A stretch of DNA of 64,000 bases, taken from the NCBI RefSeq assembly GCF_016756595.1, contig NZ_AP023257.1, forward strand, positions 4,046,001 through 4,110,000, given 5' to 3'. The first letter of the stretch is position 1; each line of letters begins with the position of its first letter. This document shows, piece after piece, positions 16,009-49,091 of this stretch. A program made the translations under genes and the position numbers. The stretch is from Mesorhizobium sp. L-2-11 (lineage in GTDB: Bacteria > Pseudomonadota > Alphaproteobacteria > Rhizobiales > Rhizobiaceae). The notes below the pieces were generated by a model that had not been told where the DNA came from, did not search any database, and saw only the letters and a list, made by a program, of their open reading frames with translations.

Positions 16009-16116
16009 GCACTGGTCACGGCGCAGACCCCTCTGTCTGCGCCGTGAGGGCTCTCCGCCGGCGTTTTGCCAGGCGACAACACCAGCGTCTAAATTGAGTG
16101 TTTTTCATCCAAAACA

Positions 16117-45414: not shown

Positions 45415-46830
45415 ATGCCGATCAACATCACAATGCCCGCCCTGTCGCCCACGATGGAAGAGGGCAATCTCGCCAAGTGGCTGGTCAAGGAGGGCGACAA
45501 GGTTTCGCCGGGCGATGTGATCGCCGAGATCGAGACCGACAAGGCGACGATGGAAGTCGAGGCCGTCGATGAGGGCACGGTCGCCAAGCTCGTGGTTCCG
45601 GCCGGTAGCGAAGGCGTCAAGGTCAACGCGCTGATCGCCGTGCTTGCCGCCGAAGGCGAGGATACGGCGGCTGCCGCCAAAAGCGGTGACGGCGCTGCCG
45701 CGCCGGCAAAAGCCGAGGCGAAGCAGGACAAGGCCCCAATCTCCCCACCCGTGGGGGAGATGTCGACGAAGTCGACAGAGGGGGGCGCTGTCCCGCCAGC
45801 CGCAAGGAGCGAGGCGCCCCCCTCTGGCCTGCCGGCCATCTCCCCCACAAGGGGGGAGATCAGCCAATCGCCGGACGGCCGCACCTTCGCCTCGCCGCTG
45901 GCCCGTCGCATCGCCCGGGAAGCCGGTGTCGATGTCTCCGCGGTGACTGGCTCTGGCCCGCATGGCCGCGTGGTCAAGGCCGATGTCGACGCAGCGATTT
46001 CCGGCGGCGGCGCCAAGGCGGCACCGGCCGCGAAAGCGGCACCTGCCGGCGCTCCGGCTCCGGCTGTCGCAGCCAAGCCAATGTCGGACGACCAGGTGCT
46101 GAAACTGTTTGCCGACGGCTCTTACGAGCTTGTCCCGCATGACAACATGCGCAAGACCATTGCGCGCCGGCTGGTCGAGGCCACGACCACCATCCCGCAT
46201 TTCTACCTGACGCTCGACTGCGAGCTTGATGCGCTTCTGGCGCTGCGCGCGCAGGTCAATGCGGCCGCCCCGGTGAAGAAGACCGACAAGGGTGAGGTGC
46301 CGGCCTACAAGCTGTCGGTCAACGACATGGTCATCAAAGCGATGGCAATGGCGCTGATGGCTGTGCCGGATGCCAATGCGTCATGGACCGAGAGCGCCAT
46401 GGTCAAGCACAAGCATGCCGACGTCGGTGTCGCCGTGTCGATCCCCGGCGGGCTGATCACGCCGATCATCCGGCGTGCCGACGAAAAGACGCTGTCGGTC
46501 ATCTCCAACGAGATGAAGGATCTTGCCGGCCGCGCGCGCAGCCGCAAGCTGAAGCCGGAAGAATACCAGGGCGGCACCACGGCGGTGTCCAATCTCGGCA
46601 TGTTCGGCATCAAGGACTTTGCCGCCGTCATCAACCCGCCGCATGCGACGATCCTGGCGGTCGGCGCCGGCGAGGAGCGCGCGGTGGTCAAGAACGGTGA
46701 GATCAGAACAGCCACCATCATGTCGGTGACGCTGTCGACCGATCACCGCGCCGTCGACGGCGCGCTCGGCGCCGAACTGCTCGGCGCCTTCAAACGCATG
46801 ATCGAAAACCCGATGGGCATGCTGGTCTAG
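45415..46830 (+). CDS. pdhC: Dihydrolipoamide acetyltransferase (E2), with an in-frame palindromic repeat
   Basis: E2 forms the core of the complex and transfers acetyl to CoA. Domains: lipoyl 1-80 (Lys43), linker, subunit-binding domain (about 160-195, 'FASPLARRIAREAGVDVSAVTGSGPHGRV'), second linker, acyltransferase domain (about 235-471) with 'DHRAVDGALGAELL' holding the catalytic His. The first linker contains residues about 109-149, encoded by a palindromic element of the rhizobial intergenic type read in frame. The total of 471 residues is longer by about that amount than a linker without it. Confidence 0.96.
   Translation: MPINITMPALSPTMEEGNLAKWLVKEGDKVSPGDVIAEIETDKATMEVEAVDEGTVAKLVVPAGSEGVKVNALIAVLAAEGEDTAAAAKSGDGAAAPAKAEAKQDKAPISPPVGEMSTKSTEGGAVPPAARSEAPPSGLPAISPTRGEISQSPDGRTFASPLARRIAREAGVDVSAVTGSGPHGRVVKADVDAAISGGGAKAAPAAKAAPAGAPAPAVAAKPMSDDQVLKLFADGSYELVPHDNMRKTIARRLVEATTTIPHFYLTLDCELDALLALRAQVNAAAPVKKTDKGEVPAYKLSVNDMVIKAMAMALMAVPDANASWTESAMVKHKHADVGVAVSIPGGLITPIIRRADEKTLSVISNEMKDLAGRARSRKLKPEEYQGGTTAVSNLGMFGIKDFAAVINPPHATILAVGAGEERAVVKNGEIRTATIMSVTLSTDHRAVDGALGAELLGAFKRMIENPMGMLV
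45738..45861. repeat. RIME-like palindromic element inside pdhC
   Basis: Left half 45738-45789 and right half 45812-45861 are inverted relative to each other. The outer stems contain CTCCCCACCCGTGGGGGAGAT and CTCCCCCACAAGGGGGGAG, the inner stems GAGGGGGGCGC and GCGCCCCCCTC. The separating part (45790-45811) is unpaired. The sequence looks like the rhizobial intergenic mosaic elements that normally lie between genes; here it is translated without a stop, contributing Pro/Ser/Gly/Ala-rich residues to the E2 linker. Confidence 0.85.
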
Positions 46831-47630: not shown

Positions 47631-49091
47631 GTGGCTGAGAACTACGACGTCATCATCATCGGCTCCGGCCCCGGCGGCTATGTCACGGCGGTGCGTTCCG
47701 CCCAACTCGGATTCAAGACAGCGATCGTCGAGCGCGAGCATCTCGGCGGCATCTGCCTCAACTGGGGTTGCATTCCGACCAAGGCGCTGCTGCGTTCGGC
47801 CGAGATCATGCACTATTCGGATCATTTGAAGGACTACGGCTTGAAGATCGACGGCAAGGTCAGCGTCGATACCGCTGCCGTGGTCGACCGCTCGCGAAAG
47901 GTTTCGCTGCGGCTGAACGGCGGCGTCGCCTTCCTGATGAAGAAGAACAAGGTCGATGTCATCTGGGGCGAGGCCAAGCTGTCCAAGGCGGCTTCCGGCG
48001 ATAAACCGGGCGAGATCGTCGTGTCGAAATCGTCGAAGAAGCCGATGGAGCCACAGCCGCCGGCGCCCAAGGGCGTCAAGGGCGAGGGCACATACACTGC
48101 CAGGCACATCATCCTGGCGACCGGCGCCAGGCCGCGGGCGTTGCCCGGCATCGAGCCCGACGGCAAGCTGATCTGGACCTATTTCGAAGCAATGGTGCCG
48201 AAGGAGATGCCGAAATCACTGCTGGTGATGGGTTCGGGCGCAATCGGCATCGAATTCGCCTCATTCTACCGCACCATGGGCGCGGAGGTGACGGTGGTCG
48301 AGTTGTTGCCGGCGGTGATGCCGGTCGAGGACGCAGAGGTCTCGAAATTCGCGCAAAAGCAGTTCGAGAAGCAAGGCATGAAGATCATCCTCGATGCCAA
48401 GGTCACCAAGGTCGAAAAAGCTGCGAACTCGGTGACCGCGCATGTCGAGATGAACGGCAAGGTCGAGAAGATCACCGCCGACCGGATGATCTCGGCCGTC
48501 GGCGTGCAGGGCAATATCGAGAATCTCGGCCTCGAAGCGCTCGGCGTGAAGACCGATCGCGGCTGCGTCGTCGTCGACGGCTACGGCAGCACCAATGTGC
48601 CCGGCATCTATGCCATCGGCGACGTTGCCGGCCCGCCTATGCTCGCCCACAAGGCCGAGCATGAAGGCGTGGTCTGCGTGGAAAAGATCGCCAACGTCCC
48701 CGGCGTGCACGCCACTGACAAACTGAAAATTCCGGGCTGCACCTATTGCAACCCGCAGGTTGCCTCCGTTGGGTTGACTGAAGCGAAAGCCAAGGCCGAA
48801 GGCAAGGACATCCGCGTCGGCCGCTTTCAGTTCGCCGCCAACGGCAAAGCCATCGCGCTCGGCGAGGACCAGGGTTTCGTCAAGACCATCTTCGACAGGA
48901 AGACCGGGCAGTTGCTCGGCGCGCATATGGTCGGCGCCGAAGTGACCGAGCTGATCCAGGGCTTTGTCGTGGCGATGAACCTGGAGACCACCGAGGAAGA
49001 ACTGATGCACACGATCTTCCCGCATCCGACGCTGTCGGAGATGATGAAGGAAAGCGTGCTCGACGCCTATGGCCGCGCGCTCAACGCATGA
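47631..49091 (+). CDS. lpdA: Dihydrolipoamide dehydrogenase (E3)
   Basis: E3 reoxidises dihydrolipoyl groups with NAD+. GTG start at 47631 with AGGGGAGAAA upstream. The 486-residue product has the FAD motif 'IIGSGPGGYVTAVRSAQLG', redox Cys42 and Cys47 in 'GGICLNWGCIPTK', NAD motif 'MGSGAIGIEFASFY', and 'YAIGDVAGPPMLAHKAEHEG'. The C-terminal interface contains the catalytic His-Glu dyad 'HTIFPHPTLSE'. A Lys/Pro-rich loop of about 25 residues (about 120-148) is inserted before 'ILATGARP'; such loops occur in rhizobial LpdA. Confidence 0.97.
   Translation: MAENYDVIIIGSGPGGYVTAVRSAQLGFKTAIVEREHLGGICLNWGCIPTKALLRSAEIMHYSDHLKDYGLKIDGKVSVDTAAVVDRSRKVSLRLNGGVAFLMKKNKVDVIWGEAKLSKAASGDKPGEIVVSKSSKKPMEPQPPAPKGVKGEGTYTARHIILATGARPRALPGIEPDGKLIWTYFEAMVPKEMPKSLLVMGSGAIGIEFASFYRTMGAEVTVVELLPAVMPVEDAEVSKFAQKQFEKQGMKIILDAKVTKVEKAANSVTAHVEMNGKVEKITADRMISAVGVQGNIENLGLEALGVKTDRGCVVVDGYGSTNVPGIYAIGDVAGPPMLAHKAEHEGVVCVEKIANVPGVHATDKLKIPGCTYCNPQVASVGLTEAKAKAEGKDIRVGRFQFAANGKAIALGEDQGFVKTIFDRKTGQLLGAHMVGAEVTELIQGFVVAMNLETTEEELMHTIFPHPTLSEMMKESVLDAYGRALNA

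What the first reader, a model, noticed from the sequence alone, without database searches (positions are those of the whole stretch)
45738..45861. Intergenic-type palindromic repeat captured in frame by the pdhC linker
The element has two inverted halves with nested GGGGGAG and GGGGGGCGC stems, the look of rhizobial intergenic mosaic elements that normally lie outside genes. Here it is read through without stop and supplies about 41 residues of the first E2 linker (about residues 109-149). Palindromic elements that spread into coding sequence are described for Rickettsia; an equivalent in a rhizobial pyruvate dehydrogenase would be a good example of a mobile palindrome adding protein sequence. 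The flexible linker should tolerate it. Family assignment is from memory of the pattern.
Basis: partly seen in the sequence, partly recalled or inferred. Interest (0 to 1): 0.75.

Follow-up and report, generated by a model that had tools for sequence, protein, structure and literature searches.

The report
Mobile palindromes translated inside rhizobial enzymes
A short DNA palindrome that is scattered through the genome of a rhizobial bacterium also lies inside core enzyme genes, where the sequence says it is read as ordinary protein, and related species have it, lack it or carry another palindrome at the same spot.

Summary
The finding holds and is larger than stated. Window 45739-45860 is a nested palindrome (RNA fold -87.4 kcal/mol, z -7.15), read in frame as PdhC residues 109-149. 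Its half-motif occurs 194 times in the own genome, against 0 for a reversed control, and in 50 of 121 family genomes. Of 30 same-genus pdhC loci read, 4 carry the element, 1 another palindrome, 25 neither; presence is scattered on a pdhC tree. In-frame copies also sit in GlyS, GlyQ, IleRS, 5-oxoprolinase, CobN, ABC ATPases and others, and GlyS and 5-oxoprolinase sites are empty or differently filled in relatives. In the own genome 7 of 129 element intervals were classed as in-frame inside genes; the two hairpins are in codon phase in 5 of 6 of these but in 12 of 73 others. Coding palindromes are known from Rickettsia, Wolbachia and some REP families; my literature searches found none for rhizobia. 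Not shown: the mobilising enzyme, identity with RIME, the peptide itself.

The parts
45415..46830 (+). pdhC, E2 of pyruvate dehydrogenase (471 aa), host gene
   Evidence: ORF; TIGR01349 558.8 bits over cut-off 445; Biotin_lipoyl 4-77, E3_binding 158-191, 2-oxoacid_dh 236-470
45739..45860 (+). captured palindromic element, residues 109-149 of PdhC (first linker)
   Evidence: copies elsewhere; absent in 25 of 30 loci read
45739..45761 (+). left terminal hairpin ATCTCCCC..GGGGAGAT (ISPPVGEM)
   Evidence: (D1)
45762..45788 (+). left small hairpin GTCGACGAAGTCGAC and inner arm CAGAGGGGGGCGC
45814..45837 (+). right inner arm GCGCCCCCCTCTG and small hairpin GGCCTGCCGGCC (the half-motif used for counting starts at 45814)
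45838..45860 (+). right terminal hairpin (ISPTRGEI)
45861..45872 (+). 3' tail CAGCCAATCGCC shared, with small changes, by copies in glyS site 3 and the 5-oxoprolinase gene

Best explanation
The segment is a copy of a non-autonomous, dispersed palindromic repeat that entered the first linker of PdhC and is translated as part of the enzyme. Shown by sequence: a repeat family, presence/absence at the same codon site, in-frame copies in several unrelated enzymes and in more than one layout, and in the own genome a preference inside genes for one phase (ISP..GE) in which both hairpins give a hydrophilic Ser/Pro/Gly/Glu peptide. Inferred: copies land widely, and survive inside a gene only at a loop or linker, with a length that keeps the frame and in the phase that gives a soluble peptide. 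Afterwards they are kept, erode by in-frame deletion between their own repeats, and pass between species and between two E2 gene types by homologous recombination, so that an element-derived linker and the native Ala/Pro/Lys/Glu linker alternate within the genus. That the peptide is really in the protein is inferred from the open, in-phase frames, not measured.
For: Copies. Polymorphic pdhC linker: 4 element, 1 other palindrome, 25 neither, of 30 loci read; 38 of 39 rows: 13 element, 24 none, 1 other; strongly supported branches force at least 6 changes; neighbouring rows G043/G016, G109/G014 and G068/G060 differ. Other hosts: of 108 proteins, 97 carry E2 domains in the table and 11 do not (4 GlyS, GlyQ, GNAT, ABC ATPase, CobG-like, CoA ligase-like, PBP1C, one without Pfam); 5-oxoprolinases; IleRS. 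glyS, 30 loci: site 2 filled 15, empty 11, not read 4; site 3 full 6, collapsed 2, other palindrome 1, empty 20, not read 1. 5-oxoprolinase site, 30 loci: this element 3, another palindrome 8, empty 19. Own-genome census from DNA: 7 of 129 intervals in frame; phase 5 of 6 against 12 of 73, Fisher p 0.0014. In 26 E2 inserts the three forward frames are open in 26, 24 and 25, so for E2 the phase used is not explained by stop codons alone. The pdhC search lists, for the own genome, no E2 between the gene itself and a 34% relative.
Against: One half of one CobN copy (G000:C1:3111916-3112099) and one half in PBP1C P0108 read in another phase. The protein searches used the ISP-phase peptide and so were biased; only the own-genome census is free of that, and it rests on 6 two-hairpin copies. 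In glyS the other forward frames are often closed: +1 and +2 open in 9 and 1 of 12 site-2 inserts and 3 and 0 of 4 site-3 inserts, so there stop codons may explain part of the phase. The 26 E2 inserts are not independent, and were picked by an ISP-phase pattern (26 of 30 loci). No target-site duplication could be recognised. Third-position excess among substitutions is weak: 180/128/217 and 502/309/586 for codon positions 1/2/3 in two E2 sets, 73/105/115 in glyS site 2. No peptide evidence.
Confidence: 0.88

Rival explanations
1. Each filled site is a separate de novo insertion at a hotspot, not one insertion spread by recombination or diverged from one ancestor.
For: Different palindromes occupy the same codon site: glyS site 3 in G043, pdhC linker in G034, the 5-oxoprolinase site. 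The G043 glyS palindrome has no better than chance-level similarity to the pdhC element (best E 0.92 in a four-sequence comparison).
Against: pdhC copies share extra flanking codons (such as AKQDKAP before, QS after) across species and with the second E2 gene type, which fits exchange of one allele; P0039 looks like a hybrid of the two E2 types joined near the element. The 5-oxoprolinase and G034 palindromes share modules with the pdhC element (78% over 50 bases and 83% over 30 bases), so divergence or mosaic exchange is possible there.
Confidence: 0.25
2. The element is in the gene but not in the protein: it is removed from the RNA or bypassed by the ribosome as a hairpin.
For: The RNA is extremely stable; hairpin bypassing exists in other systems (recalled, no call).
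Against: A bypassed insert need not keep frame or phase; in the own genome 5 of 6 two-hairpin copies in genes do, and filled glyS and 5-oxoprolinase genes stay open through it.
Confidence: 0.04
3. The segment is native low-complexity E2 linker that only looks palindromic by chance.
For: E2 linkers vary and are rich in Ala and Pro.
Against: Near-identical DNA elsewhere in the genome, 0 control matches, z -7.15, absence in 25 of 30 loci read.
Confidence: 0.01
4. Host genes are pseudogenes or misassemblies.
For: None found.
Against: Open frames in many separate assemblies; domains on both sides of the insert in PdhC, GlyS P0064, HyuAB, CobN and the ABC ATPase.
Confidence: 0.01

Closest known systems
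Rickettsia palindromic elements (RPE) and Wolbachia palindromic elements
   Same: About 100-150 bp palindromes, dispersed, inserted in frame in conserved genes including an aminoacyl-tRNA synthetase, with different groups at or near the same place of a gene in different species (passages of PMC3767692, PMC2229807, PMC10969869 seen).
   Different: No sequence model names the insert; GC-rich; in a rhizobial genus whose own genome here is 7.4 Mb. Empty, full, collapsed and differently filled states of one codon site are seen within one genus.
Intragenic GTAG/CGTC-tagged REPs
   Same: Small palindromes, mostly extragenic, some inside ORFs in several species, often as pairs (passages of PMC3733652).
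   Different: End tags were not scanned for here. The one Y1 transposase of the own genome has no copy within about 1.5 kb, and 12 of 13 genus genomes searched have none, among them G012 with 86 half-motifs. Mesorhizobium does not occur in that paper's main text; its supplements were not seen.
Rhizobium-specific intergenic mosaic elements (RIME)
   Same: Rhizobial, repeated, intergenic; rhizobial genomes are said to hold dozens of such sequences (passages of PMC2573895). This element or its half is on plasmids of Rhizobium and Sinorhizobium.
   Different: Sequence not compared: the original paper is not held.
Enterobacterial RU-1/RU-2/RU-3 in ORFs
   Same: Small mobile repeats whose open frames are fused to genes (abstract and outline of PMC2759123).
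   Different: Other hosts; sequences not compared.

Membership tests
Protein-coding palindromic element (RPE-like class) | Palindrome of about 100-150 bp in many copies per genome | tested here: met
Protein-coding palindromic element (RPE-like class) | In-frame insertion in conserved genes, with insert-free orthologues | tested here: met
Protein-coding palindromic element (RPE-like class) | Same reading phase in different genes | tested here: met
   12 of 13 halves in own-genome genes; exceptions in CobN and PBP1C
Protein-coding palindromic element (RPE-like class) | Insert present in the protein product | not testable with these tools
   no proteomic data at hand
Rickettsial RPE families proper | NCBIfam/Pfam model match to the insert | tested here: not met
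   no such family in the tables shown for the proteins scanned (long tables were cut at 25 rows for P0100)
RIME | Sequence match to RIME1/RIME2 | not testable with these tools
   no sequence available
REP with RAYT | Y1 transposase beside a copy | tested here: not met
REP (GTAG/CGTC) | Terminal GTAG or CGTC tag | not tested
   not scanned
MITE | Target-site duplication | tested here: inconclusive
   none recognised by eye at glyS sites 2 and 3 or the 5-oxoprolinase site
Rfam RNA family | Match over gathering score | tested here: not met
   2 sub-threshold matches only, 27 against 168 and 24.7 against 137 bits

The most novel reading that the evidence does not exclude
Rhizobial genes contain permissive codon sites that work as sockets for palindromic cassettes: several distinct palindromes, some sharing modules and some not, mostly read in a phase that gives a soluble flexible peptide, replace each other and the native linker at the same codon by recombination, so that mobile palindromes are a standing supply of interchangeable linkers for core enzymes in free-living bacteria.
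Probability: 0.36. Interest if true: 0.85.

Novelty: new variant of a known kind. Interest (0 to 1): 0.74.

Why it matters
Protein-coding palindromes are best described in reduced intracellular bacteria (Rickettsia, Wolbachia), with intragenic REPs listed for some others. Here the behaviour appears in a large-genome rhizobial genus, in genes such as glyS and pdhC, with empty, filled, collapsed and differently filled alleles within one genus. That makes open questions testable in ordinary laboratory strains: hotspot or common descent (left open for RPEs in a passage of PMC3767692), neutral or useful, and what moves these elements.

Tried and rejected
Autonomous partner: two copies whose halves lie about 1.5 kb apart (L081, L082) were opened; both hold a long stretch with the same inverted ends that landed in the hairpin and looks like an IS4/IS5-type transposase gene (recognised from memory, not searched), so they are target sites, not sources. 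RAYT: one Y1_Tnp in the own genome, no element beside it. Rfam: nothing over threshold. GlyS structure prediction: mean pLDDT 38.7, too poor to use. A proline-rich stretch in lpdA (window 48040-48100) held no hairpin in my scan. Gene tree at the 5-oxoprolinase site: only 5 of 27 inner branches starred and one row (G043) on a very long branch, so only the state counts are used. misread minus-strand or wrong-frame loci; replace them. On recheck the alternative palindromes turned out partly to share modules with the pdhC element, so I dropped the word unrelated, lowered the hotspot rival from 0.30 to 0.25 and the novel case from 0.40 to 0.36.

Papers: searches listed none on coding palindromes in rhizobia (titles and abstract starts seen; passages of six papers and abstracts of two opened). 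The library holds only open-licence papers, so this is weak evidence of absence.

Full report
Observation. Outer arms 45739-45762 and 45837-45860 are 88% complementary and the inner arms 45776-45788 and 45814-45826 are fully complementary. The pdhC frame runs through it from 45415 to 46830. As RNA it folds at -87.4 kcal/mol against a shuffle mean of -57.4 (z -7.15). The host is a normal E2 by NCBIfam and Pfam, and the insert lies between the lipoyl and the E3-binding domains.

Repeat family. BLASTN with the element gives 137 matches in the own genome, both strands and half-matches counted, with only 40 of 191 candidates scored. A 30-base half-motif with up to 3 mismatches occurs 194 times (99 forward, 95 reverse), its reversed control 0 times. 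Of 121 genomes drawn from the family, 50 have matches, up to 305 in one, and the control is 0 in all 121. On plasmids, 176 records match (139 of them Rhizobium or Sinorhizobium), but only 5 with at least 80% of the element; the rest are partial, and the listed ones are mostly half-elements. Two layouts occur: halves with the GCGCCCCCC arm outward, and the pdhC layout with the ATCTCC hairpins outward. The genus name Mesorhizobium rests on the names of the closest listed proteins.

pdhC. Of 61 same-genus genomes searched, 30 loci (the best scoring, so biased towards the own gene) were read: 4 carry the element (own, G019, G043, G032), 1 (G034) a different palindrome, 25 neither. The G034 palindrome has 7 matches in G034, itself and partial ones included, and shares a 30-base module with the pdhC element at 83%. 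A 76-residue peptide around the insert is found at E 1e-12 or better in 82 of 146 genus genomes, in E2 and in other genes. On a tree of the catalytic domain (38 rows of 39 tried, L047 lost; 9 rows were added because they are filled; 2 rows are under half complete), filled and unfilled rows are mixed and strongly supported branches force at least 6 changes. The linker is 81-85 residues with the insert (4 proteins) and 62-72 without (24 of 25 measured). The copies share flanking codons (such as AKQDKAP before, QS after) across species and with a second E2 gene type. I read this as exchange of one linker allele by recombination plus losses; this is inference.

Other genes. A database search with the PdhC insert region gave 108 proteins, 97 with E2 domains and 11 without (18 sequences read in full). 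The 11 are 4 GlyS (P0010 and P0077 with three inserts each; P0010 is partial), GlyQ, GNAT, ABC ATPase, CobG-like, CoA-ligase-like, PBP1C and one without Pfam. Searches with two further hosts gave 305 proteins (120 listed) and 40 proteins, adding 5-oxoprolinases and an isoleucyl-tRNA synthetase (P0181, TIGR00392 747.4 bits over cut-off 621.4). These searches used the ISP-phase peptide and cannot show how often other phases occur.

Same site, different content. glyS, 30 loci chosen by similarity to a filled query: site 2 filled 15, empty 11, not read 4; site 3 full element 6, single collapsed hairpin 2 (own genome and G003), another palindrome 1 (G043), empty 20, not read 1. The G043 palindrome has 58 matches in the own genome and 23 in G043, both strands and partial ones counted, and no better than chance-level similarity to the pdhC element. 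5-oxoprolinase site, the 30 best of 57 genomes with a match, all read: this element 3 (G034 collapsed, G019 lacking its right hairpin), another palindrome 8, empty 19. That other palindrome matches the pdhC element at 78% over 50 bases and the G043 glyS palindrome at 88% over 40 (a tiny comparison set of GC-rich palindromes, so the E-values mean little): a mosaic family is likely. No target-site duplication is visible by eye; a few host codons are replaced. Solved GlyRS beta chains align in three stretches whose breaks (query 344-461 and 637-689) take in sites 2 and 3.

Census from DNA. I fetched 100 own-genome stretches around copies found by three searches; the list is incomplete because one search printed 100 of 194 places. 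With the window and L107, BLASTN and a hairpin pattern gave 129 element intervals, at least 25 of them under 80 bases. A codon model trained on 28 window ORFs classed 7 as coding on both sides in one frame without a stop, 2 as same frame with a stop, 5 as coding on both sides in different frames on one strand, 51 as coding on one side, 59 as none and 5 as too near an edge. The 7 are PdhC, two places in the HyuAB-type 5-oxoprolinase gene (one a 52-base piece), two in CobN, GlyS site 2 and an ABC ATPase. The census misses some: the collapsed hairpin at GlyS site 3 was classed as coding on one side. Of the 13 halves in the 7, 12 read in the ISP phase; the exception is one half in CobN. Among copies with two hairpins, both are in one phase in 5 of 6 in genes and 12 of 73 elsewhere (45 with fewer than two hairpins and 5 edge cases set aside), Fisher p 0.0014. 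In 26 E2 inserts (of 30 loci; 4 not matched by my pattern) the three forward frames are open in 26, 24 and 25; in glyS site 2 in 12, 9 and 1 of 12 and in site 3 in 4, 3 and 0 of 4. So avoidance of stops does not explain the phase in E2 but may do so in part in GlyS. Copies of one site are not independent.

Mechanism. Shown: repeat, polymorphism, open frame, several hosts. Inferred: translation into the protein; survival only at permissive sites and in the soluble phase; spread by recombination; erosion by in-frame deletion between internal repeats. Unknown: the enzyme that moves it. The own genome has one Y1 transposase, with no copy within about 1.5 kb, and the other 12 of 13 genus genomes searched have none, among them G012 with 86 half-motifs.

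Relation to what is known. It works like the Rickettsia elements: in-frame palindromes in conserved genes and different groups at one place (passages of PMC3767692, PMC2229807, PMC10969869, PMC3733652). A passage of PMC2229807 says that one RPE-bearing enzyme, guanylate kinase, is active with changed substrate affinity. By sequence models it is not one of them. Membership in RIME could not be tested. A structure prediction for GlyS was too poor to use.

Noticed in passing
L081 (G000:C1:5938300-5940900), L082 (G000:C1:4873500-4875900): Two copies of the element are split by near-identical IS-like stretches with ends CAGGGCTGTCCGGGGAAAGTT landed in the hairpin: the element is an IS target.
   Followed up: partly
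P0039, and L151 (G045): E2 proteins that look like hybrids of two E2 gene types joined near the element; the element may be a crossover point that swaps lipoyl domains.
   Followed up: no
L111 (G043) glyS site 3; L038 (G034) pdhC linker; L246-L253 5-oxoprolinase site: Further palindromes, partly sharing modules with this one, are also captured in frame at the same codon sites.
   Followed up: partly
P0181 residues 356-394 and 550-593: An isoleucyl-tRNA synthetase with two palindrome-style inserts, the first (TSPLAGEVSAERTEGGG..PPLTPPRKGEG) of a different type.
   Followed up: no
L101-L130 (glyS), between ALRRAALG and DLLAFF: A stretch of GlyS that varies from about 33 to over 100 residues between species; unexplained, not tested for palindromes.
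   Followed up: no
window 16016-16047: Hairpin TCACGGCGCAGACCCCTCTGTCTGCGCCGTGA, not of this family by its sequence.
   Followed up: no
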